DNA of 64,000 bases, from NCBI RefSeq assembly GCF_041346925.1, contig NZ_CP166840.1:1674001-1738000 (forward strand). Direction: 5' to 3'. Below are positions 20,101 through 55,447 of this stretch, piece after piece. Below the pieces are notes generated by a model. That model made no database searches, was not told the origin of the DNA, and saw only the letters and a program-made list of their open reading frames with translations. A program made the position numbers and the translations under genes. This DNA is from Agaribacterium sp. ZY112 (GTDB taxonomy: Bacteria > Pseudomonadota > Gammaproteobacteria > Pseudomonadales > Cellvibrionaceae). Positions within the stretch are counted from its first letter, which is position 1, and every line of letters begins with the position of its first letter.

Positions 20101-23100
20101 TTAGCGCCTTTGATGCGAAAAGTGCTGAAATATTGGGTACGACAGGCAGTGACCTCGTCACCCTTGTTACATCAAGCAGCATCGATTTAAGGCAGTCTGG
20201 TGATGCTAGTGATGTTCGCATTAGTAATGTTGGTTCTGTTGATTTAGGTGGCAGTGATTCGGATTCAGTTGTTGGCCTTGCTGATCAGAGTTGGTTACTT
20301 ACCGATAACACCGGTAATTTCCAGGCAGGTGTTGGTGGTATTACCTTAGCGGGTATCGAGCAAGCATCGGTTGCTTCCGGTACCGCTTCTATAACTACAA
20401 GCTCTGGTGACGTAGACGCTTTTGTAATTTCTGGCTCGAATTCAGTTACAGCAAACGGCATCGACTTTAGTTCGGTGTCTGATATCACTTTGGATTCTAC
20501 GGATACCGTGGCGGATGACGGCACTGGTTATAACTACGAGTTGGCATCTAGCAGTGCAGTGAATGTGGGTGATTTGGCCTTCACAAATGGTGATGTCGAT
20601 AACTTTGGTTGGGCTACTGGTGACACTTTAGCGCTAGCTTCTAGCCATTCTTTGACTGCCTCATCGGCAGATATTGATGCCAATGGCGCGACCCTTCGTG
20701 GCAGTGATCTAGCTGATACATTTACTTTAGATGGTACAACTGTTAACTATACACGCGGTGCAGCTGGTGCAGCAGTTAGCTTCACCAGTGTGAGTGTTAT
20801 TGATGCTGGGGATGAAGCCGATACGATTCAAGCGTCTTCAGATCAGCGTTGGCAGTTAACGGCTAATAACGGTGAGTTACAACTTCTTGATAGTAATGAC
20901 AGCAGCCTGATCTTAACGGCTTCGTCTATTGAGTTTGTTGAAGCGGGTGATTCCGTTACAGGGCATAGTGGTACGGCAGAGACCTTAGAGATTAGTGGTA
21001 ACCAAAGTTTTAGTATTGCTGCCATGGATTTCTCAGGTATCGACTCTGTCGCTTTGCAAGCTGATGACCTTGTAACAGACACAGATACAGACGCTGGTGA
21101 AGGTACTACAGAGTTAGATACTCATTACCAGATTACAAATGCTACCGAGGTTGTTTCCGAAGGTATAACCATTAGTGGAGCGACTCTGGTCAATTATGCG
21201 TGGGCAGCAGGTGACACAATTGGCCTTACAACTGGGCATGGTGTGAGCGCCTTTGATGCGAAAAGTACTGAAATATTGGGTACGACAGGCAGTGACCTCG
21301 TCACCCTTGTTACATCAAGCAGCATCGATTTAAGGCAGTCTGGTGATGCTAGTGATGTTCGCATTAGTAATGTTGGTTCTGTTGATTTAGGTGACAGTGA
21401 TTCGGATTCAGTGGTTGGCCTTGCTGATCAGAGTTGGTTACTTACCGATAACACCGGTAATTTCCAGGCAGGTGTTGGTGGTATTACCTTAGCGGGTATC
21501 GAGCAAGCTTCGGTTGCTTCCGGTACCGCTTCTATAACTACAAGCTCTGGTGATGTAGACGCTTTTGTAATTTTTGGCTCGAATTCAGTTACAGCAAACG
21601 GCATCGACTTTACTACAGTGTCAGCAGTTACCCTAGACTCAACGGATACGGTAGTGGATGACGGCGTTGGTTATAACTACGAGTTGGTATCTAGCAGCGC
21701 AGTGAATGTAGGTAACATAGCTTTCACAAGTGGTGACATTGATAATTTCAGTTGGGCCGCTGGCGATACTTTGGCTCTAGCTTCTGGCCATTCATTTACT
21801 GCATCATCGGATGATATTGATGCTAATGGTGCGACGTTAACGGGTACGACCAGCGATGACACGTTCACCATTACTGATACGAATGATATTGACTACCAGC
21901 GAGCGAGTGCCGGTGAACAGATTAGCTTTGTCAATGTTAGTGATGTGGATGCGGGGGACTCGACTACGGGCGACAGCATTCGGTCTGATGTTGGCACCCC
22001 AGCGTGGCAGTTACTAGCTGGCGCCGAGGTTTCTTCAAGTGGCGTGGTTTTCTCTAATGCTGAGATTTTTGGTGAAGTTGGCGATGGTGCTAGTTTTACG
22101 GGTAAATCAGGCGCTATAGATGCAGTTACTTCTACTGCGCTTAATAGGGTGACCGTTGATACTTTAGTGTTTGCTGGAATTGACGAAGTTAATTTAACTC
22201 AGTCAGAAGGTGATACTTTTGGCTCGATCTTATCCAGTACCCATTTTGATTTGTACAGTGCTAGCCGTACTGATGTGAACAGTATTCAAGTGCTGGGTTT
22301 GAATACGAGTCAGTTTACTTGGGCTTTAGGTGATACTTTGGCTTTAGCTTCTGGCCATTCATTTACTGCATCATCGGATGATATTGATGCTAATGGTGCG
22401 ACGTTAACGGGTACGACCAGCGATGACACGTTCACAATTAAAGGTAGTGAAGCCGTTGACTATCAGCGAGCGAGTACCGGTGAACATATTAGCTTTGTCA
22501 ATGTTAGTGATGTGGATGCAGGGGACTCGACTACGGGCGACAGCATTCGGTCTGATGTTGGCACCCCAGCGTGGCAGTTGTTAGCTGGGGCCGAGGTTTC
22601 TTCAAGTGGTGTGACCTTCTCTAATGCTGAGTTTTTTGGTGAAGTTGGTGATGGTGCTAGTTTTACGGGTAAATCAGGCGCTATAGATGCAGTTACTTCT
22701 GCTGCGCTTAATAGTGTGACCGTTGATACTTTGGTGTTTGCTGGAATTGACGAAGTTAATTTAACGCAGTCAGAAGGTGATACTTTTGGCTCGAGCTTAT
22801 CTAATACTCATTTTGACTTATTCAGTGCTAGCCGTACCGATGTAAATAGTATTCAAGTTAAGGGCCTAACTACGAGTCAGTTTACTTGGGGGGCAGGCGA
22901 TACACTCGGTCTTGCCGATGGTCATGAATATACGGCCTCATCGACGGACATTGACGCCAACGGTGCGACACTAACGGGTACGACCAGCGATGACACGTTC
23001 ACAATTAAAGGTAGTGAAGCAGTTGATTATCAGCGAGCGAGTGCCGGTGAGCAGGTTAGCTTTGTAAATGTTAGTGATGTGGATGCGGGTGACTCGACTA

Positions 23101-26100
23101 CGGGCGATAGCATTCGGTCTGATATTGGCACGCCAGAGTGGCAGCTATTAGCTGGCGCTGAGGTTTCTTCAAGTGATGTGACTTTCACTAATGCTGAGCT
23201 TTTTGGTGAAATCGGCGATGGTGCTAGTTTTATTGGTAAAGCTGGCGCTGTAGATACAGTTACATCCAGCGCGATTAATCGCTTAACTGTCGATACTCTA
23301 GAGTTTTATGGGATTACGGAAGCTAATTTAGTCGAGGCTGAAGGTGATACATTTGAATCTACGGCTGCGTCGACCCATTACAGTTTAGTGAGCAGTAGCG
23401 AGGCTCATGTTAATGATATTAACGTTAAGGGTCTTAGCTCAGGGGCTTTTGAGTGGGATGCGGACGATACCATTGGTCTTGCTGATCTACATACATTTAT
23501 AGCCAGTGATGAGATTCAAGCTAAAGATGCGACCTTAATTGGTTCGACTGGTGACGATGTATTTACTATTACTGGGTCTGGCGAGCTAGATTACACTCGT
23601 GGTGATACCGGTAATGGGGTTTCAGGTGTTGCGGTCACGATCACCGGTTTATCTGACGTAAGTGGTCTTAGCGGTGATGACACCGTTATCGGTATGGCTA
23701 ATCAGGCTTGGTCACTGGTTAGTGGTGATGGGCAAAATAGTATTGAGGCATCAGCGCAGAGCTTAAGCTTTAGTAATGTCGATGTATTGGGCGTGGCTTC
23801 AGGTACCGCCTCATTAGCCAACCGTAGTGAAACAGATTCTTATAGCATTACAGGTGATAGCAGCTTAGATGTTCTTGGTTTAAGTATTTCTGGCCTTGGC
23901 TCAGTTGTACTTGATGGTAGTGATACAGTTACCGATGATGGTGTCACAGGTTATAGCTATGAATTAGTCTCTAATACGGCTGTTAATGTTGGCAGTTTGG
24001 CATTTACTAGCGGTGCTCGTGATAACTTTGGTTGGGGGTTGGGCGATCAAATTAGTTTAGCGAGTGCTCATAGCGTTTCTGGTTCGGTAGATGCAAACTC
24101 TGCTCAGTTACTTGGTAGTGATAGCAATGATGGCTTTAATTTACTTGCGGTAGGTGAGCTTGAGTATCAAAGAGCCAGTGTTGGTGACTGGGTTCAATTC
24201 TCAAATCTTGTCTCGGTCGATGCGGGTGATGCTGCTGGAGATAGCTTGTCGACGGATGTTGCAGCGACAGAGTGGGCTTTAATATCGGCCACACAGGTTG
24301 ATGCTGCTGGGATCAGTTTCTATAACGTTGATAATTTTAGTGACAGTGCAAATAGCGCTACTTTTGTTGGGCGTACCTCTTCGGCAGATATTGTTACGAC
24401 TTCAGCGGACAATGAGCTGAGTGTTGAGGCCTTAAGTTTTAGTGGGGTTGCATCCGTCGAGTTACAAGATGGCGATAGCTTCACCGTTGACGGTGACCAG
24501 CTGTTTACCTTAAACGGTATGTCGGATGTAGATGTTAACGAAATGAATGTTACTGGCTTATTGCTTGGCCAATTTGACTGGGGCACTGGCGATTCATTAG
24601 CGCTGGCAAACGGTCATACGTTAACCTCTAGTGACGAGATTGATGCTAATTCCGCATTACTTCTTGGTAGTGATGGCGATGATATTTTCAGTGTTTTGGC
24701 TGATAACAGTGTGTCGTTTGAGCGATCAAATTCCGATGAGGCCGTTGAATTTATAAATGTATCTACGGTGGACGCCGGTGATGCATCTGACGTAGATACA
24801 GTCATAAATAATCACGATAAATCTTGGACTCTAGTTAGCTCAACTCAGGTTGATACGCCTACGATTAGCTTCTTAGATGCGGAAAGTTTTAGCACTGGTT
24901 CTAACGACGCTACCTTCATAGGCTCTTCTAGTACTGATGAGCTTGTATCTTCTTCTAATAATCACGTTGAGGTTCTTGGCTTAACATTTAACGGTATTAA
25001 TAAAGCTGAACTTAGCGCTGATGATACTTTTGAGGTTGATAGTGCTAGCTCCGTTACTTATTTAATTTATAGCGATAGTCGTACTGATGCTAATTCGATT
25101 TGGGTGGAAGGTTTGCCTTCTGCTGGTTTTGGCTGGGCTGCGGGTGATCAAATTGCATTGGCCGATGGCCATACCTATACCCAAACCATTGACGCGGGTG
25201 GGGCTACGTTATTAGGCAGTGATGGTGAAGATGTATTTACCGTAACGACAGATGGTAATGTAAGTTATCAGCGTGCAGGTTCAGCATTAGAAGTCTTGGT
25301 AACCTTTGACGGGGCAGGCACAGTTGATGCGTCTTTGGGTGACGATTTGGTCGTTGCCGCCTCTGATCAGGATGTCACAATCAATGGTGAGAACAGTGTT
25401 TCAAGTGCGAACCTCGTATTTGCAGATATTCAGGACGTGACGCTTACTGGTGGTCAGTTGGTAAATGATGCTAGCGCTGTAGATGAGTTCATAATTACTG
25501 GTGATAGTGAGTTAAGTGCTCGTGGCATGAATTTCAGCGGTGTTGACTCTGTGCTTATGGCTGCAGACGATACATCAAGCCACGATGGTTTATTACCAGT
25601 TAACTATTTCTTGATGTCTGATAAGCGGGTTGACCTTACTACACAAAACATATCTCTTGAGCTAGACGCGACTGCAAGTGCTTTTGCTTGGGCTAATCTT
25701 GGCTGGGTAGTCGGTGATACTGTTGGTTTACAACAGGGGCACAGCTTATCGAGTAACAATCAGGCGAGCGCTATTGAGCTAAATGGTGCAACCTTGGTTG
25801 ATGGTGTAGGTAATGATGAGTTTGTGATCGTTGATGACAGAGTTGTGACTTTGTCTCTGGATGATGGCAGTGATAATGCAACGATCTATTTTACGGAGTC
25901 TACACTTGCGCAACTGAATATCGAAAGCGAATTCGGTTCTGATACAGACACTATTTCAAGCCTATCTGATTGGCAGATAGAAAGTACCACATCTGCCCAG
26001 TCTGCCAATGTATTAGTCGATGGTATTGAGCGTATTACCAGCGCTAGTACAGTCACAGGTAAAGATGGCAACAGTGATAGCGTTTTAGTTACGAGTAATG

Positions 26101-29100
26101 ATAGTTTCGAGCTTGAAAATGGTATCGAGTTTACTGACGTTGATGCTCTAGTTTTACAGGCTGAAGACACTGTTTCTGACAATGGCGCCTATGATTATTT
26201 CATAGCAGGTCAAAGTAATGTTGACCTCGTACTATCAGGTGGAAGTCGCACTGATGGTATCAATATTACCGGTTTAGATATTACTGCTTTTGCGCAAGCT
26301 GATGTTGGTTGGTCAAGTGACGATGTTATTAAGGTTGATTCCGCTCCTGCTGTTGTGACTGCCTCTGCCCTAGATAGTAAAGGCGCGTTGATTGTTGGTA
26401 GTGCAGCTGAAGATAATACTTATACTCTGATTAGTGATGATTCACTGGGCTTAAATGGTGTTAATTTCTCAGGTGTTGATTTCTCTAGCGCCGCAGGCTG
26501 GGATAACAATGACTTTATTGAATTGGCTGACAGCTTTGTTTTAAACGATCAGCAAATTGATGCGAACTATGCCACCTTTGTTTCTGGTGATGGTGATGAC
26601 ACCTTTAATTTAGAGGGGCTTGCGAGCTTAGATAGCGTTGAGTACTTTGGGGGCGATAGTAAGCTCACACTTACCAATATCAATAATGTTTTAATGGATA
26701 GTGGCAACGATACTGTTACCGGCTCTTCGGATCAGGCTTGGAGTTTAGAGGGTGCAAACCAAGTTAGCAGTAACGGTGTGTTATTTTCAGGTGTTGATAT
26801 CGTTGAGTTGGCAGACGGACAGTCTGTGAGCGGTATGATTCTTTCTCATAATTCGGGTAATGCTGAGACATTTAACATTGTTGCAGAGAATACTGTGGAG
26901 GTTGATGCAATAACTTTCACGGGTATTGGCAGTGTGAATTTGGATGATGCGCAAGACTCGGTGACGGATGCTGGTGATTTAACGTATAAAATTGCTTCTG
27001 TTAATGAAATTGAAGTTGCATCGATTAATTTCAGTGGTGCGGGTACGGATGACTTTAGCTGGGGAGCAGGCGATCAGCTGACTTTGGCCGAAGGTTATAG
27101 TTTTACCGATGGCTTTAGTTTGGATGCCCAGCAAGCGTCACTATTAGGTAGTGACGGTGATGATATCTTTGCTGTTTCTGGCAGCTCGGTTGCATTCTCT
27201 CATAGTGGCTTAACAGCCGTTGAATTTACAAATGTTGGCTCTGTTGACGCTGCTGGTCAAGCTTCATCTGACCTTGTTACGGGGGTTAATGGTCAGACTT
27301 GGCAGATAGATGGCAATAGTTCAGTCACTGCGGTGAATGCCAGTAATTCTTCTGCGTCGATAGCTGTTACAGGAGTTGAATCTGTTGGTGCGGCTGGTAC
27401 AGATTCTCATATTTTGGGGACTTCTTCTGCCGATACTTTTGATGTAACAGGACAGAATGCGGTAAGCGCTTATCAAATGGACTTTAATGGTGTTCAGTCT
27501 ATCGCGGGTAATGGCGGCGATGACACTGTAGTTGGTTTGGATGGCGCTGATTGGCAGTTACTGGCAAATGAAGTTAATTCTGTTATCACCAGTGGAGTAA
27601 CATTCACTGAATTTACAAGTGCTACAGCAAGTGGTTCAACGCTTCATGGTGTTGATAATGTAGCAGATACCTTTGTTCTCAATAGTAGTGATAACTCTAT
27701 TCGTAACAATTCAGACGGTATTTTATTTTCTGGTGTGACTCGTATTGACGCAGGGAGCGGAGAAGATTCGGTGATTAGCTCCAATGCGATTACTTGGAGC
27801 TTAAGCGGTGTTGATAATCAATTAATCGCGAATGGAATGGATTTTGTTGGTATTGATCGCGCTGTTCAAGAGGGCTCCTCTGAGGCGGTTATTGCTGGTT
27901 CTTCTGGTGGCACTAACTATCAGTTAAATGGTAGTGATGGTGCTCTCTCTGCAGCATCCATTGAGTTTGTAGGTATTAGCCAAGTCGAGGCTCATGAGAA
28001 TGATGCTTTAGTGGGCAGTGACTTAGGTGAAGATTATGTGTTGAATAGCGATGCGTCTGTTGATGTACGCGCTATTAGCTTCACTAATATTCGTACAATA
28101 AACGCAGGTTCTGGCCAAGATTCTGTTGCAGGCTCTGCTGCAGATTCATGGTCGGCCGCTTCTGAGAATAACGAGCTTCTAAGTCAACAGGCCTTAGCAT
28201 TAATAAGTGGTGTTAGCTTACGCTTCACAGGTTTAGAGCAAGTGACGGGTACTGGTCTTTTGACTGGCTCTGGTGTTAGTTCTGAATATTCGTTAACTGA
28301 TTTTAATACGATTGACATTATTGGTTCGAATATCACTTTCCATGATGTAGCTGAGGTGGATGTTAATGGATCGAATGACACCTTAATTGGACCTAATTTA
28401 TCTGCCAGCTGGACGATCAATGGTGATACTGGTTCGATTGAAAATATAGCAGGTAGTGAGACCTTAAGCTTTAGTGGAGTTGAAGCTATAGGAGCGGGCT
28501 CTGAAGCTGATGTGTTTTACTTCCTTTCCGGCTCGATAGACTCTGTATCTACAGGCGCTGGTAATGATCTAGCTTATTTTGATGGTGGTGTCGTTACGAG
28601 TTTAAATTTAGGAGATGGAAACGATATTGTTGAGATTAATACTATCGATTCGGCTCCAAGTAATTTAAATGCCGGAGCCGGTACAGATAGCCTAATCAAC
28701 AATGTTGCAGGCCTTGTTTGGAGAGTGACAGGAAACATCAGTGCTGTTAATTATTTAGGTGACTTTGCGTTTAGCAACTTTGAGAGCCTTGATAATAATG
28801 TCACTGATCTTGTTCTAGAGACTTCTCTGCAAACAGTGTTTAACAGCAGCAGCGTCAGCTTTACTGATGCGGGTATGGACTTAAGTTTCAATTCTGAAGG
28901 TAACGTTAGTATTAACAGCACTAACACTTCTAGCGAAGCTATAACTGGCCGAATAGAAGCGGTTGAGTTGGATATCGTCAGTTCTGGTGATGTAACGCTG
29001 GAGACAGCTATTGATGTTGTGAATGTTGCAACAAATGATGAGCGCTCGATTTCTGTTGATATTTTAGAAGACGATGACTTAGTCTTGCGAACAATTGATG

Positions 29101-29981
29101 CTGGTCGTGATGGATATATCAAGTTAGGTAGTGTTGGTGCAGGCAACCTTACTTCTGAAGGTTATGGTGATACCAATTTTATTGCAGGCACAGTTGAAAT
29201 TGGCACCGATTATCGTTTCTTGGAGATCGGTGATACGGCGAGACAGCAAGGTGTGACCTTTGATGTAACCGATCGTGTTGATATGAAGTCGTTCTTCTTC
29301 GTAACACCAACTTTTGTTGGTCAGGTTCCAACCAGCTTTAGCGCAGAGGGTGAGGAGATTCAGCCTTATACAGGTAATGTATTGCCTATCCTAGAAAGCT
29401 ACGCTCAGGTCGATCCAGGTATTTTTGAGTCAGTTAATCCTTATACCGCCGATGCAAATGCTTTGGGTGGTGTAGAGCAGGGCGAAGCTGCCGCTATTGT
29501 GGGTGGTGACGCTGCTGATGCGGGTTATGATGCAAATAACTACGCAGAAGTTCTGTTGACTCTAGCTCCAACAGCAGCGGGTGAAGGAGATACGGAAGAG
29601 GAAGTAGCTGAAGAGCTTGTAACTGAAGATAGTGATTGGTATACCAACGCTGAAGGTCAGGTTCGAGTTGCGCTTGATGAAGCGGGAGATATTCTTGGTG
29701 TGGTTGTGGACTACGCGGTTGTTCAAGGCGATACCATGTGGGATCTGTCTGAGCAGTATCTACAAAATGCTAAAGATTGGCAGGCTATTTGGCAGCGCAG
29801 CCCTGGTGTTGAAGACCCTGATCTTATCTACCCTGGCGAGGCTGTTAATGTCGTTGTTAAAGTTGGTGGTGAGTTATTAGAGCAGCTGCGTGCGGCGCTA
29901 GCTGCTCGTCGTGAAGATGGCAGTGACAACCCACTAGGTATGGATGTGCTTGTACCTGTAAGTAATCGTAATGAGTTCTAA
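11133..29981 (+). CDS. Giant TpsA exoprotein/adhesin with TAAG site and C-terminal LysM (CdrA-like)
   Basis: A 6282-residue two-partner secretion exoprotein. It has an extended signal peptide of about 66 residues (cleavage near SPAFA/GPEGG), then the TPS/haemagglutination domain with the NPNG motif (VNPNGVLF), and the FHA-family block AGIWLIDPKDFRI near residue 495. From about residue 900 to 5800 it is built of degenerate repeats whose hallmark is 'W-x-AGDTLxLADGHSFTASS' followed by 'DIDANGATLxGSxxDDTFT'. Some copies are nearly identical in DNA. The C-terminal 400 residues are non-repetitive and contain TAAG (residues 6147-6150) and a LysM domain (about 6194-6245, VVQGDTMWDLSEQYL). I noticed no cysteine. 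It is probably a surface adhesin held by its C-terminus in the periplasm. An intrinsic terminator follows. Confidence 0.93.
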   Translation: MTKQANNRAVSLKRKTTANNKVATAFKPRRKALARAISASRVVRGGLKTSLFGGLFAGQLLSPAFAGPEGGNVVGGSADINQSDKNTTINQHSDRVSINWSSFNVAVDERVEFIQPDSSSVALNTILDQNVSTIRGSLDANGQVILVNPNGVLFTDTATISVNGLVASGLGIDSDAFMNGNMLFKGVEGKDGVVINQGLINASSVALVGKHVSNSETALISADVISLAAADEAMLTFDADGLIGVKIEKSVLENSLGVDSAVLNEGQLEGQKVLLDASVSKDLFHNAVNNSGTVTARGIDTSGGKIRLFGGSPTTEAEGSARVVNSGTLDASALHDGGIVHIEGDQVVNSGTILVDSTGSGNQAGKGGQINVLGDTVELSGESYLSAQGEAGGGEILIGGDYQGKNTEVRNATTTTIGEHVVIDASGNNLGDGGKVIVWANEDAYFYGFIDASSGLLGGDGGFIETSGKQIIDLKGYAVAKSHKGGQAGIWLIDPKDFRIVDSQDDTDGTNTVTDEFVEQVLNQGTSLTIQTTASNINSTNDLSDFYNPWNDSTNVSTLISGANTTTANGWSGKLIVDAEINTNVGSTASGSSGKGPATLTLIADGGDLVVNQAIINDGGGNATEGLNVVLQSDNLIDVNANITTAGGYVEMGGIAADSHSAQVDIAGGVTINTTDTITNDVAATNGSGDITIRTGQLTNSGTLNLGDSGASSTGGDLYGSFNLSLDEDLESTLGLVTNAGGVAVTGSNSADVTINQFMALATGNSGISINTDGDVDIANGLNTNGGTLNIGNTTAAAEVNIGAIVVQTGGAAATIKTAGSFSNSGTLNVGTGTAAIEVGTAGAGSNNTLGNITAQTLTVAGHSTGSDNFNYTTDRAYTVDSTSNQVSYTDASVTNAVVMTGVDGITDTDGGSSVLADGGYTGSFDLIENSTQTGLDARASGITFSGVNTLTGAGSTEVRSSDQSVDWFVSGTNRQAAYGFDGTNVSSEISLASVSNSFFGGKSLNVGTLTANTFTADAEGSQNFTLQAASASGLDGINSIAIDTGNFVFSDIATLDANAGDVAIKASDALESDTSAIFDLNGSGSALANSAARFYRENSGDGNNELLITEVAAINNTRRLKLADGSDEVLTLSGFGAAQAFNGIDFSDISEIDTGTGSDSLTADLQGAGETESFILSTSGDDLALTVGGIQFIGLDAVSSNADTNNVTNASGIAIGLVADSGNGNVAKDNQISATYNTDSLVLEDVSSVSTTGDLTATDANQNFTVSESSLNTLATAGITFSGVDSVDGAGGSDTVTGDSDQQWDLVKDIDDNAVANAISAAGIDFSGISNAVQGAGLVADIGSIGRVAGTGDTFVLGDKATRSLTVNGISFTHIGEVTNATGGSTTLSDTGAADYVLSSLTSVDSINGIDFNGFVFSGTPWSAGDTLALADGHSISGHSTANAIDVNSAQLLGSSGADYLRLLDVTFGGNATHDGVGLGQTDTVYFANIGSVDLLGDTGVAGDTVIAEAHYDGEGGNADADAIWLLTGNENELSWQGLTIANVDNARVADGQTGSIKSNGSDAFVLADYDNGNGNNIVTARGITFNSVNAVAVSGTDTVGDSGSVFYELKDDSTTLANSITFNGNAQSWNWSAGDYLGLASGHSFDESDTFVANGATLRGSDLADTFTLDGTTVQYARGAASGGVNFTGVTQIEAEGESDTIKASTDQRWQLTANNGELQLLDSNDSSLILTASSIEFVEAGDSVTGDSGTVETLEISGNQSFSIAAMDFSGIDSVTLQADDLVTDTDTDAGEGTTELDTHYQITNATEVVSEGITISGATLANYAWAAGDTIGLTTGHGVSAFDAKSAEILGTTGSDLVTLVTSSSIDLRQSGDASDVRISNVGSVDLGGSDSDSVVGLADQSWLLTDNTGNFQAGVGGITLAGIEQASVASGTASITTSSGYVDAFVISGSNSVTANGIDFSLVSDITLDSTDTVADDGTGYNYELASSSAVNVGDIAFTSGDIDNFSWASGDTLALAASHSFTASSTDIDANGATLTGTASDDTFTIKGSEAVDYQRASAGEQVSFVNVSDVDAGDDTTGDSIRSDVGTPAWQLLAGAEVSSSDVTFSNAEIFGEVGDDASFTGKSSAADAVTSGGTNSITVDGLTFAGIDEVNLTQSEGDTFGSSLSNTHFDLFSASRTDVNSIQVKGLTTSQFTWGAGDTLGLADGHEYTASSTDIDANGATLTGTTSDDTFIIKGSEAVDYQRASAGEQVSFVNVSDVDAGDSTTGDSIRSDIGTPAWQLLAGAEVSSSDVTFTNAEFFGESDDGASFTGKSGATDVVTSSAINRLTVDTLEFYGITEANLVEAEGDTFESIADSTHYSLVSSAEAFVNDIEVLGLSSSNFNWNHKDSIGLADGHTFTAIDEIKAKDATLIGSTGDDVFTITGSGELNYTRGDTGNGVSGVAVTITGLSEVSGLSGDDTVIGMANQAWSLISDDVATVGLDDGQNSIEASAQSLSFSDVDMLSVASGTASLANRSETDSYSITGDSSLDVLGLSISGLGSVVLDSSDTVTDDGVTGYSYELVSNTAVNVGSLAFTSGARSNFTWGAGDTVTLSSGHSVSGSVALTGAGLQGSDSADALIITGSDSLNLNYEGDGNLVAFTGVSTVDLDGGADTVSVSGSAGISKTWTLVSDIRVDVADMQISNALSYSGVVDDNTWTFNDRDSEVDIITSSGINSLTVEGIDFDGIQVAQLSSDDGFSSTLSNTHYDLHSASRIDVNAIQVQGLDTSGFTWDSNDSLGLADGHSFTALSDDIDANGATLRGSDLADTFTLSGTTVQYARGAASGGVHFTGVTTIDAGDEADTIQASSDQRWQLTANNDELQLLDSNDSSLILTASSIEFVEAGDSVTGDSGTVETLEISGNQSFSIAAMDFSGIDSVTLQADDLVTDTDTDAGEGTTELDTHYQITNATEVVSEGITISGATLANYAWAAGDTIGLTTGHGVSAFDAKSAEILGTTGSDLVTLVTSSSIDLRQSGDASDVRISNVGSVDLGGSDSDSVVGLADQSWLLTDNTGNFQAGVGGITLAGIEQASVASGTASITTSSGDVDAFVISGSNSVTANGIDFSSVSDITLDSTDTVADDGTGYNYELASSSAVNVGDLAFTNGDVDNFGWATGDTLALASSHSLTASSADIDANGATLRGSDLADTFTLDGTTVNYTRGAAGAAVSFTSVSVIDAGDEADTIQASSDQRWQLTANNGELQLLDSNDSSLILTASSIEFVEAGDSVTGHSGTAETLEISGNQSFSIAAMDFSGIDSVALQADDLVTDTDTDAGEGTTELDTHYQITNATEVVSEGITISGATLVNYAWAAGDTIGLTTGHGVSAFDAKSTEILGTTGSDLVTLVTSSSIDLRQSGDASDVRISNVGSVDLGDSDSDSVVGLADQSWLLTDNTGNFQAGVGGITLAGIEQASVASGTASITTSSGDVDAFVIFGSNSVTANGIDFTTVSAVTLDSTDTVVDDGVGYNYELVSSSAVNVGNIAFTSGDIDNFSWAAGDTLALASGHSFTASSDDIDANGATLTGTTSDDTFTITDTNDIDYQRASAGEQISFVNVSDVDAGDSTTGDSIRSDVGTPAWQLLAGAEVSSSGVVFSNAEIFGEVGDGASFTGKSGAIDAVTSTALNRVTVDTLVFAGIDEVNLTQSEGDTFGSILSSTHFDLYSASRTDVNSIQVLGLNTSQFTWALGDTLALASGHSFTASSDDIDANGATLTGTTSDDTFTIKGSEAVDYQRASTGEHISFVNVSDVDAGDSTTGDSIRSDVGTPAWQLLAGAEVSSSGVTFSNAEFFGEVGDGASFTGKSGAIDAVTSAALNSVTVDTLVFAGIDEVNLTQSEGDTFGSSLSNTHFDLFSASRTDVNSIQVKGLTTSQFTWGAGDTLGLADGHEYTASSTDIDANGATLTGTTSDDTFTIKGSEAVDYQRASAGEQVSFVNVSDVDAGDSTTGDSIRSDIGTPEWQLLAGAEVSSSDVTFTNAELFGEIGDGASFIGKAGAVDTVTSSAINRLTVDTLEFYGITEANLVEAEGDTFESTAASTHYSLVSSSEAHVNDINVKGLSSGAFEWDADDTIGLADLHTFIASDEIQAKDATLIGSTGDDVFTITGSGELDYTRGDTGNGVSGVAVTITGLSDVSGLSGDDTVIGMANQAWSLVSGDGQNSIEASAQSLSFSNVDVLGVASGTASLANRSETDSYSITGDSSLDVLGLSISGLGSVVLDGSDTVTDDGVTGYSYELVSNTAVNVGSLAFTSGARDNFGWGLGDQISLASAHSVSGSVDANSAQLLGSDSNDGFNLLAVGELEYQRASVGDWVQFSNLVSVDAGDAAGDSLSTDVAATEWALISATQVDAAGISFYNVDNFSDSANSATFVGRTSSADIVTTSADNELSVEALSFSGVASVELQDGDSFTVDGDQLFTLNGMSDVDVNEMNVTGLLLGQFDWGTGDSLALANGHTLTSSDEIDANSALLLGSDGDDIFSVLADNSVSFERSNSDEAVEFINVSTVDAGDASDVDTVINNHDKSWTLVSSTQVDTPTISFLDAESFSTGSNDATFIGSSSTDELVSSSNNHVEVLGLTFNGINKAELSADDTFEVDSASSVTYLIYSDSRTDANSIWVEGLPSAGFGWAAGDQIALADGHTYTQTIDAGGATLLGSDGEDVFTVTTDGNVSYQRAGSALEVLVTFDGAGTVDASLGDDLVVAASDQDVTINGENSVSSANLVFADIQDVTLTGGQLVNDASAVDEFIITGDSELSARGMNFSGVDSVLMAADDTSSHDGLLPVNYFLMSDKRVDLTTQNISLELDATASAFAWANLGWVVGDTVGLQQGHSLSSNNQASAIELNGATLVDGVGNDEFVIVDDRVVTLSLDDGSDNATIYFTESTLAQLNIESEFGSDTDTISSLSDWQIESTTSAQSANVLVDGIERITSASTVTGKDGNSDSVLVTSNDSFELENGIEFTDVDALVLQAEDTVSDNGAYDYFIAGQSNVDLVLSGGSRTDGINITGLDITAFAQADVGWSSDDVIKVDSAPAVVTASALDSKGALIVGSAAEDNTYTLISDDSLGLNGVNFSGVDFSSAAGWDNNDFIELADSFVLNDQQIDANYATFVSGDGDDTFNLEGLASLDSVEYFGGDSKLTLTNINNVLMDSGNDTVTGSSDQAWSLEGANQVSSNGVLFSGVDIVELADGQSVSGMILSHNSGNAETFNIVAENTVEVDAITFTGIGSVNLDDAQDSVTDAGDLTYKIASVNEIEVASINFSGAGTDDFSWGAGDQLTLAEGYSFTDGFSLDAQQASLLGSDGDDIFAVSGSSVAFSHSGLTAVEFTNVGSVDAAGQASSDLVTGVNGQTWQIDGNSSVTAVNASNSSASIAVTGVESVGAAGTDSHILGTSSADTFDVTGQNAVSAYQMDFNGVQSIAGNGGDDTVVGLDGADWQLLANEVNSVITSGVTFTEFTSATASGSTLHGVDNVADTFVLNSSDNSIRNNSDGILFSGVTRIDAGSGEDSVISSNAITWSLSGVDNQLIANGMDFVGIDRAVQEGSSEAVIAGSSGGTNYQLNGSDGALSAASIEFVGISQVEAHENDALVGSDLGEDYVLNSDASVDVRAISFTNIRTINAGSGQDSVAGSAADSWSAASENNELLSQQALALISGVSLRFTGLEQVTGTGLLTGSGVSSEYSLTDFNTIDIIGSNITFHDVAEVDVNGSNDTLIGPNLSASWTINGDTGSIENIAGSETLSFSGVEAIGAGSEADVFYFLSGSIDSVSTGAGNDLAYFDGGVVTSLNLGDGNDIVEINTIDSAPSNLNAGAGTDSLINNVAGLVWRVTGNISAVNYLGDFAFSNFESLDNNVTDLVLETSLQTVFNSSSVSFTDAGMDLSFNSEGNVSINSTNTSSEAITGRIEAVELDIVSSGDVTLETAIDVVNVATNDERSISVDILEDDDLVLRTIDAGRDGYIKLGSVGAGNLTSEGYGDTNFIAGTVEIGTDYRFLEIGDTARQQGVTFDVTDRVDMKSFFFVTPTFVGQVPTSFSAEGEEIQPYTGNVLPILESYAQVDPGIFESVNPYTADANALGGVEQGEAAAIVGGDAADAGYDANNYAEVLLTLAPTAAGEGDTEEEVAEELVTEDSDWYTNAEGQVRVALDEAGDILGVVVDYAVVQGDTMWDLSEQYLQNAKDWQAIWQRSPGVEDPDLIYPGEAVNVVVKVGGELLEQLRAALAARREDGSDNPLGMDVLVPVSNRNEF
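16259..17130 (+). repeat. Long intragenic repeat, copy A
   Basis: About 870 bases inside tpsA, almost base-identical to copy B (offset 3441 bp, 1147 codons) and to most of copy C. It starts at CAGCGTTGGCAGTTAACGG and encodes the segment from QRWQLTANN to about SSSAVNVG. Confidence 0.9.
17204..18337 (+). repeat. Two tandem 567-bp units in tpsA
   Basis: The anchor ATTCGGTCTGAT occurs at 17394 and 17961, exactly 567 bp (189 codons) apart. Each unit runs from DIDANGATLTGT through DSIRSDxGTPAWQLLAGAE to the next ADGHxxTASS. Unit boundaries are approximate. Confidence 0.88.
19669..20571 (+). repeat. Long intragenic repeat, copy B
   Basis: Near-identical to copy A at 16259-17130. It shares its first bases (GATGAAGCCGA and onward) with copy C rather than A. 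The offset to C is 1143 bp (381 codons), so reading frame is kept. Confidence 0.9.
20812..21611 (+). repeat. Long intragenic repeat, copy C
   Basis: About 800 bases near-identical to copies A and B, with a few substitutions (for example GGGCATAGT where A has GGCGATAGT). The similarity ends at ATCGACTTTACTACAG, near 21611. Confidence 0.88.
21788..23488 (+). repeat. Three tandem 567-bp units in tpsA
   Basis: The anchor ATTCGGTCTGAT occurs at 21978, 22545 and 23112, again exactly 567 bp apart. The last unit matches the unit at 17771 at a constant offset of 5151 bp through at least 23340, and the following KDATLIGSTGDD block is shared as well. Confidence 0.88.
29571..29582 (+). other. TAAG motif, candidate LapG cleavage site in TpsA
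   Basis: Codons ACA GCA GCG GGT encode Thr-Ala-Ala-Gly at residues 6147-6150, in the context LAPTAAGEGDTEEE. LapG proteases cut between the two alanines of TAAG-type motifs in LapA and CdrA. The site lies in an acidic, flexible-looking stretch between the repeat/passenger part and the LysM domain. It is the only TAAG I found in the protein; related DAAG and SAAG strings lie within the repeat region. Cleavage is inferred. Confidence 0.6.
29712..29867 (+). other. LysM domain at the C-terminus of TpsA
   Basis: Residues about 6194-6245 read YAVVQGDTMWDLSEQYL, then WQAIWQ and DPDLIYPGEAVNV, the classical LysM pattern (YxVxxGDTxWxIA...NP..I.PGQ.L). LysM binds N-acetylglucosamine in peptidoglycan. 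At the far end of a protein secreted N-terminus first, it is positioned to stay in the periplasm and hold the adhesin on the cell. Confidence 0.9.
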
Positions 29982-32682: not shown

Positions 32683-33840
32683 CTAAGACTCCAGACCACG
32701 GCCAGCTTGCCTAACCAACTCAGACACTGCGTGATGCATTCGTATAAAAATGCTTCTTATAAATGAGTAGGTGATGTTTACGCCTTCAACAATCTTGATT
32801 CCCAGAATTGTAGCCATACGAATAATAAGGCGTGTAACCCAAAAAGAGGCTTCTTTAACTAAATCAGCGGCTTTGTGGACGACATAAGCAAGACGATCCA
32901 AAATCGTAAATATTGTACTTCCACCTAAAACTACAGCTATACCTGAAAGGTTGATGGCTTTCTCTACCACCCATAATAAAGCGGCACCGGCAACTTCGGC
33001 GGTATTTAAACAGAATGACAGAGGGCCGTCAGACTTTAACCAAGCTTCAATAGAGGCATCTAGCATTTTCTGAGGTCTAGAGCCTGCAAGCTTATCCCAG
33101 CTATCTCTTTTTTCTACCGAGTCTATGTAGTTAGCCATTAAATGAGGCTGCCAAAATGCTAGTTGGGCATTTGATGGCAGTAAGAAGTCACCTCTTCCTG
33201 AGCTGGGTACATGCACAAATGGCCAAGTAGGGACCATAGCGACAGGGTCTGTTTTATGATGAACGCGGTAAAGATTATTGTCGCCTATTCGTGTTTTTGC
33301 CTTATTTGAAAAAAACTCTAATCCAACTCTAGGGCTGCCAAATGTATATAGTTTAACTGTGCGCCCAGTAGATGACTTAAGCCAGTCAGCGGTAAGTGTT
33401 GCTAATGCACCGCCTAAGCTGTGACCAACACAATGGATTGTGTGAATGTTTTTCGATGGTGTAGGTATATCATCTGCATATGTGTTGAAGGTATCTTGGA
33501 AGCCTTGGTGAACTTTTCCTCCCGTTCTAGATGCCTTAATGCCCGCGTTTAAATCTGTTAGGGCATCCATTAGGCTCGCCGTACCTTTTATAGCAAAAAT
33601 AGCTTGGTTTTGATAAATAGTATCTTTTAGTCCTTCGGCATATAGCCCCATCATATGAGAGGTTTTTAGTACGATGCCGCCCGTTTTACCGCTTAAACCT
33701 TTATCGCTTAAAGACGCGTTGTCACCAAGATCAAGCAAGTTTTTATATTTAAAATAAAATAACTTGCGTGTTTTTTCATTCTTTATATCGTAGATATTTG
33801 AGGCTAATCCAGCTGCAAACTCAGGGCTTAATTCAGTCAT
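32683..33840 (-). CDS. Class 3 lipase, predicted T6SS lipase effector (copy 1)
   Basis: A 385-residue alpha/beta-hydrolase of the Lipase_3 family. The nucleophile elbow is GHSLGG, the acid is in TDPVAMVP and the probable His in QPHLMANYI, so the Ser-Asp-His triad appears intact. The C-terminal third (about residues 265-380) is hydrophobic/amphipathic (AALLWVVEKAINLSGIAVVLGG and onward) and may insert into membranes. There is no signal peptide. It is a clear paralogue of the lipase at 35272-36441, with the same GHSLGG, KLYTFGSP and DPV-P-FVH-P blocks. It lies downstream of PAAR and VgrG and just after a small exported protein. Tle-type T6SS phospholipases use the same fold. AAAGGA precedes the ATG. 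Confidence 0.88.
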   Translation of the reverse strand: MTELSPEFAAGLASNIYDIKNEKTRKLFYFKYKNLLDLGDNASLSDKGLSGKTGGIVLKTSHMMGLYAEGLKDTIYQNQAIFAIKGTASLMDALTDLNAGIKASRTGGKVHQGFQDTFNTYADDIPTPSKNIHTIHCVGHSLGGALATLTADWLKSSTGRTVKLYTFGSPRVGLEFFSNKAKTRIGDNNLYRVHHKTDPVAMVPTWPFVHVPSSGRGDFLLPSNAQLAFWQPHLMANYIDSVEKRDSWDKLAGSRPQKMLDASIEAWLKSDGPLSFCLNTAEVAGAALLWVVEKAINLSGIAVVLGGSTIFTILDRLAYVVHKAADLVKEASFWVTRLIIRMATILGIKIVEGVNITYSFIRSIFIRMHHAVSELVRQAGRGLES

Positions 33841-33865
33841 ATGATAGTCCTTTGAATTATAAGTG

Positions 33866-34324
33866 TTACCAATTGCAATTTGTTAGTAGTAGTGTTTTGA
33901 ATTCTTCGTGCAGAACTGGTTCATTTGAAAGCTCGCAAGTTAATACTAATGCTTGACCGCCAAGCTCTGAGTTTTCGTCAGGTCTTCTCTTGGAGTTTAA
34001 CCATATTTCAACTTCTTTCCCTTGATAAAATACAGTAAGGGATTGAGCAACAACAAATTCAACTGGTAGTAAACTTGTAAGAGAGCGCTGATAGACAGCT
34101 TCGAGATGGATTTCACCGTTGTCATTGAGGGTGAATTCATCGCTTACTTCTTTTTGCCAAGAAATATAGCGTGTTAACTTAGCACCTGAAGCAGGTTTTC
34201 CATCCTGGGTGACTTTTAACTTTACCTCAGAAAATACGCATGACTTTCCGGCATCAAATAACGACATTGCAGCTCCAAAGCTTGAAATTAAAATTAAAAC
34301 AAAAAAAACGATAACTTGTTTCAT
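33866..34324 (-). CDS. Exported DUF6795-like protein, putative immunity to lipase copy 1
   Basis: A 152-residue protein with a Sec signal peptide (MKQVIVFFVLILISSFGAA). The mature part has the pattern 'SEVKLKVTQDGKPASGAKLTRYISW...DEFTLNDNGEIHL', a transthyretin-like carboxypeptidase-regulatory beta-sandwich as in DUF6795 (family name from memory). It then has 'NSELGGQALVLTCEL', matched by 'HSELGGSPIDLTCNL' in its paralogue at 36442-36930. It sits 25 bp upstream of lipase copy 1 in the same direction. A periplasmic protein paired with a lipase fits an immunity role, but an adaptor role is also possible. Confidence 0.82.
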   Translation of the reverse strand: MKQVIVFFVLILISSFGAAMSLFDAGKSCVFSEVKLKVTQDGKPASGAKLTRYISWQKEVSDEFTLNDNGEIHLEAVYQRSLTSLLPVEFVVAQSLTVFYQGKEVEIWLNSKRRPDENSELGGQALVLTCELSNEPVLHEEFKTLLLTNCNW

Positions 34325-34461
34325 GGTTATCCAATTTATACAGTTACTGACCAGTTTAGTCGGCTATGTATGTGGTTGTCTTTATAAGCAAACTAAGTAT
34401 TCGCTAGATTATTGTGTAGCTTGCCGCTTTAACTTTCTCGTTACCTTAGGCGACAATTAAC

Positions 34462-34944
34462 TCAAGGGTGGCCAGACTTAATGCTTTTGACTTGTTGCTT
34501 GGTTAGACTTAGCTCGATATTTGATCTTTCTAAATATTGCTTAGATTTTACTCCGAAGAGCTTAAAGTTAAGCTTAATATGTGCAGAGTCATTATTAATC
34601 AATACTGATAAGGCAATTGAAGTTTCATTATTTGGGCTTAATGCATAGTGGTCAGTTGCAGAAAGGCAGGTTAAGTCTAAATTTTTTTCCCCAAGTTGTG
34701 AGGAAATATCTTTATAACCATCTACAAACTTACCAGCGGTTAAGCTCAATCGACACTGGGTCAACTCTTTTGAAGAAAAGATAATTACAGAACCGGTCTC
34801 ACCATCATCAAATTTGAATGAGTAATCATTTACGCCTGATACAGCGAACTCGTTGTTGTTTGAGGTTGAATTCATTGTGGTACCAGCTCTTGTAAAACTT
34901 ACAAATACAGTAAAAAATAAGAGAGTGTAGATAACTGATTTCAT
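34462..34944 (-). CDS. Exported hypothetical protein
   Basis: A 160-residue protein with a signal peptide (MKSVIYTLLFFTVFVSFTRA) and a beta-rich, Ser/Asn-rich mature part with two cysteines (CRLSL, LTCLS) that could form a disulphide. I do not recognise the family. It follows the PAAR gene by 25 bp in the payload operon, so it may be a second periplasmic immunity protein. A 137-bp gap separates it from the next exported protein gene. Confidence 0.72.
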   Translation of the reverse strand: MKSVIYTLLFFTVFVSFTRAGTTMNSTSNNNEFAVSGVNDYSFKFDDGETGSVIIFSSKELTQCRLSLTAGKFVDGYKDISSQLGEKNLDLTCLSATDHYALSPNNETSIALSVLINNDSAHIKLNFKLFGVKSKQYLERSNIELSLTKQQVKSIKSGHP

Positions 34945-34969
34945 ATGATCATGCTCTACGACTCTTTAG

Positions 34970-35260
34970 CTAACCTATTAATACAGTCGGGCAGCCCACA
35001 ACAATCTTACCGCCGTGGGCGGTGGTATCTCCCAAGCGTGCGGCAGGTTTGTTGCTTAGCAAAACGGTAGTGCTACCCATGGCGATGCTGTCTGGTGGTC
35101 CTACACAAACGCAGCTGCTACCAAGTGTTGCGGCTGGCATATTGGCTATAAGAACAGTAGGGGCACCTGGCGACACAATAGGTCCGCCAACATGGGGTAC
35201 GGTGCCTGTCACCATTGGGCAGACATGCATGTCGGTTATTCTTGAAGCGGGCATTCCCAT
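34970..35260 (-). CDS. PAAR spike-tip protein
   Basis: A 96-residue protein made entirely of one PAAR domain: MPASRITDMHVCPM at the start, then repeated Pro-Ala-Ala-Arg-like turns (MPAATLGSSC, KPAARLGDTTAHGG) and the closing GCPTVLIG. PAAR proteins form the zinc-bound conical tip on VgrG and recruit effectors. It lies directly downstream of lipase copy 2 and in the vgrG operon, so it probably caps this VgrG and loads one or both lipases. There is no effector extension. Confidence 0.95.
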   Translation of the reverse strand: MGMPASRITDMHVCPMVTGTVPHVGGPIVSPGAPTVLIANMPAATLGSSCVCVGPPDSIAMGSTTVLLSNKPAARLGDTTAHGGKIVVGCPTVLIG

Positions 35261-35271
35261 AGTGATTTCCT

Positions 35272-36441
35272 CTATTTTCCTATGCCGTAAATAGCTTTAC
35301 GAGCAACTTCAGTTGTTTTTTGCATAAGCCGGTATATGACATTTCGAATTAAGACGATGGTCATCTCTTTAATATTTTTGACCACGGCCATGCCAAGTGC
35401 CTGCATCATTTTTGCGATCAAGCGAAAGAGCCATACAGAGCCATCCCAAGTCGGAAATTTTATATCTTTAATTTTGGATAGTAGATACGCGAGCTTATCT
35501 GCCAGGCTCATGAAACCAATCAAGGGCAGTTGAAGCGCATGAAAAATGCCACTTCCCGCTTTTTTGAATACCCAAATTAGAGCGCTGTTCAGTAGCTGCC
35601 AGGTTTTTGCACTTGATGAGTCTATTGGGCTTTTGGATTTTAAAAACTCTTCAATGATTTCATCAAGGGTATGGGTTGGTTGTCTTCTTTTCAGATCTTG
35701 CCATGTTAAATCTTTAACCGAGTTACAGTACTCTTTCATATCATGGGCTTGAGCAGACAATATACTCTCGCTAGAGCTAATGTAATGTCCGCTAGACTGA
35801 AATGGAGGATGAACAAAAGGGAATAGTGGGATCATTGGCACAGGATCGGTTGCTTTGAAAACTCTTTTTATATTTCTCTCTCCAATGCTACGTGTAAAAT
35901 GAGAAGAGAAAAACATCATTGCGGGCTTCGGGGCGCCAAATGTATACAGTTTTACTTCCTGTGTTTTTCTAATTGACTGAACCCAGTCGGCAGCGATAGT
36001 GGCTATAGCTCCGCCTAGGCTATGACCTATGCAATGAATATTGCCTGTACGACTATTGTTCTGATTCAGAAAGGTTAAGATATCCGACTTCATGCTTTTA
36101 AATATGTTGTTAAAACCAACATGTACAGCAAATCCTGTTTCGGAAATCTCAGTACCTATTTTAAAGTTGCTGACCCAGTCGGCACTGTTGTTTGCCGTAG
36201 TAGATCCACGAAAAATAATAAAAATATCGTTGGAATAATCGCCTGAACCAAGAGCGCACACACCAAAGCCATCAGTGGCACTTCTAATAATATGTCCGCC
36301 GACTTTAGCGGTAAGCTTTTTTTTGTCAGCGTTTTTTGTTGAAAACTCTGGCCTTAAAAGAAAGCCTTTTAAGTCTATGTCATCTTGTACGGCATAAACT
36401 TCATCAGCAAATTGGGAGGAAAGCTTAGGGTTTAACTCCAT
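35272..36441 (-). CDS. Class 3 lipase, predicted T6SS lipase effector (copy 2)
   Basis: A 389-residue Lipase_3 protein with nucleophile elbow GHSLGG, acid in TDPVPMIP and candidate His in AQAHDMKEY. It has no signal peptide; its C-terminal region has several hydrophobic/amphipathic helices (SALIWVFKKAGSGIF, LPLIGFMSLADKLAYLL). It is paralogous along its whole length to the lipase at 32683-33840. Its ATG immediately follows the stop of the upstream exported protein, so the two are translationally coupled, and PAAR follows 11 bp later. This is the classic order for a T6SS effector module. Confidence 0.9.
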   Translation of the reverse strand: MELNPKLSSQFADEVYAVQDDIDLKGFLLRPEFSTKNADKKKLTAKVGGHIIRSATDGFGVCALGSGDYSNDIFIIFRGSTTANNSADWVSNFKIGTEISETGFAVHVGFNNIFKSMKSDILTFLNQNNSRTGNIHCIGHSLGGAIATIAADWVQSIRKTQEVKLYTFGAPKPAMMFFSSHFTRSIGERNIKRVFKATDPVPMIPLFPFVHPPFQSSGHYISSSESILSAQAHDMKEYCNSVKDLTWQDLKRRQPTHTLDEIIEEFLKSKSPIDSSSAKTWQLLNSALIWVFKKAGSGIFHALQLPLIGFMSLADKLAYLLSKIKDIKFPTWDGSVWLFRLIAKMMQALGMAVVKNIKEMTIVLIRNVIYRLMQKTTEVARKAIYGIGK

Positions 36442-36930
36442 TTACCTATGCTCCTTTAATTCTCTCCAGTGACAAATGGTCATAAGTCCGCCTCGCGGGG
36501 TTTCAACTCTTCGAAGCTCATCTGTCAGGTTACAAGTTAAATCGATGGGGCTGCCGCCAAGCTCAGAGTGTATGTCTGTGTCCATCTTTCCAAAATTCCA
36601 TATTAAATATTCTTCATCTTTGTATTGGACAAAAATCCGTTGGCTTGCGAGAAATTGGTTTAAGGGCGTTAACTCAAGCTCCTCTCTTACTAGTGGTAGT
36701 TTGAAGTGCCCATGACTATCAGCTTTAAATTTTTCTTCTGAATACTCCTCGCCTTGTAACTTAATTATCCTAGTGATCTCTGCGCCAGAAGCAGGAGAAC
36801 CATTTAATAAAACATGCCCCTCTAGAGGAGAAAAAAGTACGGCATCAACTATTTTTGTACCTAAAAGTTTCACGTCAGCCTCGCAAGCAGAGATAGAAAA
36901 AGTTAAAAGAAGTACTAGAAGTATTTTCAT
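36442..36930 (-). CDS. DUF6795-like lipoprotein, putative immunity to lipase copy 2
   Basis: A protein of about 162 residues starting at the ATG at 36930, which gives a proper lipoprotein signal (MKILLVLLLTFSISAC, lipobox ISAC). The ATG at 36954 would bury that signal behind eight extra residues and overlap the previous gene. The mature part, 'LFSPLEGHVLLNGSPASGAEITR', is the small beta-sandwich also seen in the paralogue at 33866-34324. It is sandwiched between the DUF6931-like gene and the lipase with almost no spacing. Membrane-anchored periplasmic location fits protection from a phospholipase; this is inferred. Confidence 0.83.
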   Translation of the reverse strand: MKILLVLLLTFSISACEADVKLLGTKIVDAVLFSPLEGHVLLNGSPASGAEITRIIKLQGEEYSEEKFKADSHGHFKLPLVREELELTPLNQFLASQRIFVQYKDEEYLIWNFGKMDTDIHSELGGSPIDLTCNLTDELRRVETPRGGLMTICHWRELKEHR

Positions 36931-36934
36931 TCCT

Positions 36935-37510: not shown

Positions 37511-37549
37511 GGCTTTATGTAACTCTCTATTTCTTTAAGTGCGTATGCT

Positions 37550-39490: not shown

Positions 39491-39545
39491 GGCCTTGTCG
39501 CTATTTCCTGAGTGGTTAGCAATACTTTAACAGAGGGGTAGTTGC

Positions 39546-39576
39546 TTGGCTGAGCTGTCGGTAACAGTTCAGCCAA
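39546..39576. other. Second hairpin in the hcp-vgrG gap
   Basis: Arms TTGGCTGA / TCAGCCAA (8 bp, perfect) with inner CTGT/ACAG pairing around CGGTA. It lies directly downstream of the hcp terminator on the minus strand and upstream of vgrG. It may reinforce termination or shape the vgrG leader. Confidence 0.55.
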
Positions 39577-39582
39577 AAAACC

Positions 39583-39628: not shown

Positions 39629-39654
39629 TCTTATAAGAAACCGAGAACGGAAAC

Positions 39655-55443: not shown

Positions 55444-55447
55444 AATA

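What the first reader, a model, noticed from the sequence alone, without database searches (positions are those of the whole stretch)
29571..29582. TAAG protease site just before the C-terminal LysM of a giant TPS adhesin, with lapG-lapD in the same window
Seen: TpsA residues 6147-6150 are TAAG, about 45 residues before LysM; LapG (intact Cys-His-Asp) and LapD are encoded at 47455-50160. Known: LapG cuts TAAG-type sites in LapA and, in P. aeruginosa, in the TPS adhesin CdrA, under control of c-di-GMP-bound LapD. Inferred: low c-di-GMP frees LapG, which severs the repeat/passenger part from its periplasmic anchor and releases the adhesin.
Basis: partly seen in the sequence, partly recalled or inferred. 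Interest (0 to 1): 0.85.

Follow-up and report, generated by a model that had tools for sequence, protein, structure and literature searches.

The report
Giant adhesin with releasable periplasmic anchor
A giant bacterial surface protein ends in a cell-wall-binding anchor preceded by a conserved cutting site for a known release protease, so the cell can probably cut itself loose from what it is stuck to; this kind of switch is known, but the anchor and its setting in a bacterial weapon gene cluster look new.

Summary
Observation confirmed: TAAG occurs once in the 6282-residue TpsA (29571-29582), 44 residues before a C-terminal LysM; lapG and lapD are intact frames at 47455-50160. A TAAG somewhere in the protein is near chance (0.74 expected), but the site is conserved. 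Of 76 distinct homologous tails from 74 genomes, all 10 with LysM carry TA[A/S]G at the aligned place (7 TAAG, 3 TASG); 1 of 66 without LysM has TAAG. LapG passes the family cut-off in 10 of 10 LysM genomes and 15 of 64 others, but the ten are only three genera. Most likely LapG cuts TpsA free from a peptidoglycan-bound LysM anchor that takes the place of CdrA's cysteine hook. Less secure: which of the two LapG proteins of the genome acts, and c-di-GMP control. LapD 2 lacks the pocket Arg and Glu; LapD 1 has Asp for Glu and its Arg is alignment-dependent. No LapA retention module was found. tpsBA lies in a T6SS island here and in a genus of another family, a link our paper searches did not find. 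New variant of a known kind; cutting is untested.

The parts
8837..10852 (+). tpsB: outer-membrane transporter (ShlB barrel, POTRA_2)
   Evidence: Pfam PF03865 and PF08479; 49-56% identical to TpsB beside LysM-type TpsA in three Simiduia and three g106 genomes
11133..29981 (+). tpsA: 6282-residue secreted adhesin with N-terminal TPS domain, no cysteine
   Evidence: PF05860 TPS domain E 4e-27
29046..29528 (+). conserved C-terminal domain of TpsA upstream of the site, used to find homologs
   Evidence: alignment A2; matched in 59 of 144 family genomes and 28 of 390 order genomes
29571..29582 (+). TAAG, putative LapG cleavage site (residues 6147-6150)
   Evidence: TA[A/S]G at the aligned position in 10 of 10 LysM-bearing homologs
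29712..29840 (+). LysM domain, putative peptidoglycan anchor in the periplasm
   Evidence: PF01476 E 2.6e-4 here, 1.9e-11 in a Simiduia homolog; LysM-like fold
47455..48246 (+). lapG (copy 1): BTLCP protease, C146/H185/D202; real start perhaps TTG at 47575, followed by a signal-peptide-like stretch
   Evidence: PF06035; PDB 4u65 and 4fgo; start inferred by reading the frame
48274..50160 (+). lapD (copy 1): membrane receptor, GWxQ loop kept, c-di-GMP pocket Arg uncertain and Glu replaced by Asp
60..3597 (+). T6SS genes tssG (only its C-terminal part in the frame listed, at the window edge) and clpV
   Evidence: clpV 85-86% identical in three g106 genomes
32683..42544 (.). T6SS block: lipase-like genes, DUF6795, DUF6931, VgrG, Hcp, IS200-type transposase, PP2C phosphatase
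   Evidence: similar block beside tpsBA in three g106 genomes
50222..59349 (-). T6SS genes tagF, tssM, tssK and an FHA-domain gene, with two frames not scanned (54514-55443, 56849-57454)

Best explanation
TpsA is a two-partner-secretion adhesin that stays on the cell because its last ~135 residues remain in the periplasm, where a LysM domain binds peptidoglycan. LapG cuts between the two alanines of the conserved TAAG in the linker upstream of LysM; this frees the passenger, which slips out through TpsB and is shed. It works like CdrA of Pseudomonas aeruginosa, with LysM in place of the cysteine hook. Shown: the genes, the site, its conservation together with LysM, and LapG in every LysM genome. 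Inferred: periplasmic place of the C-terminus, peptidoglycan binding, cutting by LapG, and release. Which of the two LapG proteins acts is open; control by c-di-GMP through a LapD of this genome is uncertain (about 0.3).
For: TA[A/S]G aligned in 10 of 10 LysM-bearing homologs from three genera (own, g29 Simiduia, g106 of another family), 7 TAAG and 3 TASG; TAAG in 1 of 66 tails without LysM. Two further database proteins with LysM also carry TAAG. In the five-row alignment VLL....TAAG are the only invariant residues between G175 of the upstream domain and L232 shortly before LysM. LapG above the family cut-off in 10 of 10 LysM genomes against 15 of 64 others; LapD in the five LysM genomes of the family and beside lapG in three of the five g106 genomes (the three looked at). 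Intact LapG triad. No LapA retention module in the genome. Precedent: CdrA is released by LapG at a C-terminal TAAG (PMC7484184 passages; PMC4694147 abstract and first part of the Discussion); consensus [T/A/P]AAG (PMC13090378 passages).
Against: No biochemical evidence. TASG, not TAAG, in three of ten. One TAAG (G096) and two PAAG (G196, G191) tails without LysM. No DP turn at the usual place: the site reads APTAAG here, EPTA[A/S]G in g106, DATAAG in Simiduia, although DPTAAV and DPAAAG occur among listed putative LapG sites (PMC3032553 Table 2). lapGD not linked to tpsA in the other genera. Three same-genus genomes have LapG but no match to the TpsA domain. The LysM genomes are three genera, so the Fisher values (4e-7 for TAAG, 6e-6 for [TAP]AAG, 5e-6 for LapG) overstate independence.
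Confidence: 0.6

Rival explanations
1. LysM is a permanent anchor and TAAG a conserved linker feature without protease function, or a site for another periplasmic protease; the LapG proteins act on other substrates.
For: Three of ten LysM homologs have TASG; no DP turn before the site; lapGD unlinked in the other genera; other LapG-like targets may exist, such as a second TpsA with TAAG and a C-terminal cysteine pair.
Against: TAAG is among the very few invariant residues in an otherwise variable linker, matches the known LapG consensus, and is nearly absent without LysM.
Confidence: 0.25
2. The system works in full as first proposed: c-di-GMP-bound LapD 1 holds LapG 1, and falling c-di-GMP releases TpsA.
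For: LapD 1 has all domains and the GWxQ loop that binds LapG; lapG and lapD are 27 bases apart; one alignment (to a Simiduia LapD) pairs an Arg of LapD 1 with the pocket Arg.
Against: The R450 position of LapD 1 is Q, K, N, D, Q or E in six of seven alignments, and E617 is D. LapD 2 has A and Q. Of 19 relatives' and own LapD proteins with an EAL region, 16 keep R and 15 keep E; G010 keeps R with D. R450 lies in the pocket by PMC3032553; the role of E617 is recalled.
Confidence: 0.3
3. Chance: TAAG sits there by composition of an Ala/Gly/Thr-rich protein.
For: 0.74 expected in the whole protein.
Against: Conservation at one position across three genera; 1.8% in shuffles of the 105-residue stretch.
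Confidence: 0.08

Closest known systems
CdrA/CdrB with LapG/LapD of Pseudomonas aeruginosa
   Same: Two-partner-secretion adhesin cut by periplasmic LapG at a C-terminal TAAG and so released
   Different: CdrA is thought to be held by a cysteine hook in CdrB (PMC11898600, PMC7616799 passages); TpsA has no cysteine and ends in LysM. 6282 against 2154 residues. Set in a T6SS island.
LapA/LapG/LapD of Pseudomonas fluorescens
   Same: LapG triad, [T/A/P]AAG site, LapD with GWxQ
   Different: LapA is type 1 secreted with an N-terminal site after a helix and DP turn; no LapA retention module was found in this genome
HMW1 and HxuA two-partner-secretion proteins
   Same: C-terminus expected to stay in the periplasm as anchor (PMC5422565 passages)
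   Different: Disulfide loop as anchor; no LapG site known to me
Intimin/invasin (type Ve)
   Same: Periplasmic peptidoglycan-binding part of a type V adhesin (PMC10778856 passage; that it is a LysM is recalled)
   Different: N-terminal beta-barrel in the same protein; no LapG release known to me
Fibrillar-adhesin-like proteins with LysM
   Same: A survey counts four such proteins with LysM as possible anchor, and LapG motifs as anchors of RTX adhesins (PMC8286594 passages)
   Different: The passages do not put LysM and a LapG site in one protein
TasL lipoprotein of Vibrio
   Same: A large surface protein needed for cell-cell contact in T6SS killing (PMC9040878, start of abstract and passages)
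   Different: Lipoprotein, not two-partner secretion; the contact role of TpsA is only inferred from gene order

Membership tests
LapG-released two-partner-secretion adhesin (CdrA type) | TPS secretion domain and cognate TpsB | tested here: met
   PF05860, PF03865 and POTRA_2, neighbouring genes
LapG-released two-partner-secretion adhesin (CdrA type) | [T/A/P]AAG close to the C-terminus, conserved | tested here: met
   TAAG at 6147-6150; 7 TAAG and 3 TASG of 10 LysM homologs
LapG-released two-partner-secretion adhesin (CdrA type) | Targeting helix and DP turn before the site | tested here: inconclusive
   APTAAG; a low-confidence helix (pLDDT about 30) ends 4 residues before it; no DP at the usual place
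LapG-released two-partner-secretion adhesin (CdrA type) | C-terminal cysteine hook | tested here: not met
   No cysteine in TpsA; LysM instead. Hence filed as a variant, not as a CdrA
LapG-released two-partner-secretion adhesin (CdrA type) | Cleavage by LapG and release | not testable with these tools
   needs biochemistry
LapG protease (BTLCP, PF06035) | Cys-His-Asp triad | tested here: met
   C146, H185, D202 aligned to 4u65; DCED stretch also kept
LapD c-di-GMP receptor | Periplasmic domain with GWxQ loop | tested here: met
   PF16448, GWQQ
LapD c-di-GMP receptor | c-di-GMP pocket Arg450 and Glu617 | tested here: inconclusive
   LapD 1: Arg position alignment-dependent (R in one of seven alignments), Glu is Asp. 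LapD 2, outside the window: not met (A, Q)
LapA-type RTX adhesin | N-terminal LapA retention module | tested here: not met
   NF033682 has no match in the genome at E 1e-3

The most novel reading that the evidence does not exclude
A type VI secretion island carries its own detachable adhesin: a giant two-partner-secretion fibre, anchored by LysM to peptidoglycan, holds the target cell during T6SS attack, and the LapG encoded in the same island cuts it loose; LapD 1 may have drifted from c-di-GMP and answer to another signal, such as the phosphatase/kinase pathway of the island.
Probability: 0.2. Interest if true: 0.85.

Novelty: new variant of a known kind. Interest (0 to 1): 0.6.

Why it matters
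It would widen LapG release of two-partner-secretion adhesins beyond CdrA, show that the anchor part is exchangeable (cysteine hook or LysM), and tie a releasable adhesin to T6SS loci, where how cells hold and then leave their targets is open. The natural TAAG/TASG variation in one genus is a ready-made test of LapG specificity.

Tried and rejected
Linkage as evidence: lapGD next to tpsA is not kept in the other LysM genomes looked at. LapG lies about 66 and 79 kb from tpsA in two Simiduia genomes, and far off or on another contig in the other two; in g106 lapGD lies by aroQ-like genes. LapA-type substrate: NF033682 no match; the T1SS frame of 4112 residues at 682416-694754 has no [TAP]AAG in its first 1300 residues. 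The first homolog search with the whole TpsA tail matched 135 of 145 genomes, mostly LysM-only proteins of about 340-400 residues, so the upstream domain alone was used later (A2). AlphaFold2 of the 333-residue C-terminus with 5 rows was poor (mean pLDDT 36.9) and not used. The search for homologous proteins with TpsA found only itself; with a Simiduia TpsA, 3 proteins, one of them a genome already in the table. No LapG tree was made; window LapG is 31-47% identical to relatives (27 rows, two of them one gene) and 37% to the second LapG of the genome, so its origin stays open. Literature (PubMed Central library only): two-partner secretion + LysM + adhesin + LapG, 0 papers; LapG + LysM, 1 (passages); LapG + two-partner secretion + LapD, 6 (two read in passages); two-partner secretion + LysM + peptidoglycan, 8 (listing); LapG/LapD/Simiduia, at least two terms, 25 of 71 listed; T6SS and two-partner-secretion terms, 12 of 54 listed (two read in passages); T6SS + LapG + LapD, 8 (one read in passages); LapG/cysteine hook/CdrA, 10 of 56 listed; filamentous hemagglutinin/LysM/LapG, 6 (listing). 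Cooley et al. 2016 on CdrA is not held and is known only through other papers.

Full report
What is there. TpsA (11133-29981) is a 6282-residue frame with an N-terminal TPS domain, preceded by tpsB (8837-10852). It has no cysteine. TAAG occurs once, at residues 6147-6150 (29571-29582), and a LysM domain follows at 29712-29840 (just over Pfam's cut-off, but clear in a relative at E 1.9e-11). AlphaFold2 on ten aligned tails gives a LysM-like beta-alpha-alpha-beta fold with pLDDT about 80; the part with TAAG has pLDDT below 50, and a short low-confidence helix ends four residues before it. Foldseek's hits include structures titled LysM, none better than E 3.3e-3.

Is TAAG more than chance? By composition 0.74 TAAG are expected in the protein; 1.8% of shuffles of the 105-residue stretch have one. 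So conservation was tested. A profile of the domain upstream of the site (A2) matched 59 of 144 genomes of the family and 28 of 390 drawn from the order (in that search at most nine first-look candidates per genome were scored). Thirteen of the 28 were already in the family set, so 74 genomes matched. Tails were read to the stop codon in all 74, with second copies in two genomes; a partial match with a stop in G188 was not fetched. The table has 76 distinct tails. LysM was called with a profile made from five of these tails. All ten carry TA[A/S]G at the aligned place: 7 TAAG, 3 TASG. Of 66 without LysM, one has TAAG (G096, DATAAG close to its end) and two have PAAG (G196, G191). Two more database proteins, one from Simiduia litorea and one without a name, have LysM and TAAG. 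In the five-row alignment V, L, L and T, A, A, G are the only invariant residues between the upstream domain and the approach to LysM. Site and LysM thus largely come and go together.

Is LapG there? LapG passes the Pfam cut-off in 10 of 10 LysM genomes and 15 of 64 others. In genus g4 (Microbulbifer), 4 of the 38 genomes with a matching tail have LapG over the cut-off. LapD is present in the five LysM genomes of the family and next to lapG in the three g106 genomes looked at, of five. These figures rest on three LysM genera; Fisher values assume independence and are too optimistic, and LapG also occurs in several genera whose tails lack LysM. The three same-genus genomes have LapG but no match to the TpsA domain.

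(a) The genome has two lapG-lapD pairs: the one in the window and one at 2414610-2417353, with sugar-polymer genes around it by reading. (b) The LapD proteins. R450 lies at the centre of the c-di-GMP site of P. fluorescens LapD (PMC3032553 passages); the role of E617 is recalled. LapD 2 has A and Q, as does its relative in same-genus G003 (for LapD 2 one of the pairwise alignments left the Arg position unaligned). LapD 1 has D for E617, as does G010, which keeps R; at R450 seven alignments give Q, K, N, D, Q, E and R, so this position is unsettled. All four Simiduia and all three g106 LapD proteins examined keep R and E. LapD 1 keeps the GWxQ loop that binds LapG. So LapD 1 can probably hold LapG, but c-di-GMP as its signal is uncertain. 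(c) Known substrates have a targeting helix, a DP turn and then [T/A/P]AAG (PMC13090378 passages; PMC3032553 Table 2). Here the site reads APTAAG, EPTA[A/S]G or DATAAG; DPTAAV and DPAAAG are listed in that table for Bordetella and Chromobacterium, so the form is not foreign, but recognition is unproven. (d) lapGD is not linked to tpsA in the other LysM genomes looked at.

Surroundings. tpsBA lies in a T6SS island. In genus g106 a similar block (tssG, clpV at 85-86% identity, lipase-like genes, DUF6931, vgrG, hcp at 87-90%, an IS200-type transposase and a PP2C gene at 63-67%) adjoins tpsB-tpsA in three of three genomes looked at, of five. The order differs: there tpsBA follows PP2C directly. 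In three Simiduia genomes tpsBA has other neighbours within the stretches fetched. So the T6SS link is found in two of the three LysM genera, which suggests that the adhesin serves contact during T6SS attack; this is inference from gene order only.

How it most likely works. The passenger leaves through TpsB, the last ~135 residues stay in the periplasm, LysM holds peptidoglycan, and LapG cuts at TAAG to shed the passenger. It works like CdrA, but it is not a CdrA by the anchor test: CdrA is thought to have a cysteine hook, TpsA has no cysteine. I put 0.6 on LapG release and about 0.3 on control by c-di-GMP through a LapD of this genome.

Prior art. In the held library no paper was found that joins LapG, LysM and two-partner secretion or, from listings and few passages, that describes lapGD or a LapG-cut adhesin in a T6SS locus. 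Most subscription papers are not held.

Noticed in passing
G000:C1:2417524-2418087 (L005:3037-3585), L126:7137-7754, L157:2618-3070, L158:5512-5979: A small secreted-looking Ala-rich protein encoded beside lapD carries a segment like known LapG sites (helix, GGAD[P/A], then TAAG): DP in 2 of 4, TAAG in 3 of 4, PEAG in this genome. Found in 4 of the 17 lapD loci scanned; no Pfam family above its cut-off. Possibly a soluble LapG substrate, in this genome perhaps an uncuttable decoy.
   Followed up: partly
G000:C1:3539910-3543152 (L011): Second two-partner-secretion passenger (1080-residue frame) with TAAG 174 residues before its end and a C-terminal cysteine pair like an HMW1-type hook; conservation of its TAAG not tested.
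   Followed up: no
L158:4118-5314, L157:3259-4503: Microbulbifer LapD-like frames at lapG loci are short: four of 398-414 and five of 233-263 residues. The one scanned has the LapD periplasmic domain, a GGDEF match below cut-off and no EAL match.
   Followed up: partly
45930-47447: A 505-residue VipB-like protein with a weak VipA match at its N-terminus, 21-27% identical to the VipB-type proteins of the related islands; a divergent paralog beside lapG.
   Followed up: no
G000:C1:682416-694754 (L043): 4112-residue type 1 secreted adhesin next to a transporter-like frame, without [TAP]AAG in its first 1300 residues; LAEAG near residue 112 could be a lost site.
   Followed up: no
L163, L164, L165: TASG in place of TAAG at the same position in three g106 genomes that keep LysM and LapG: a natural variant for testing LapG specificity.
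   Followed up: partly
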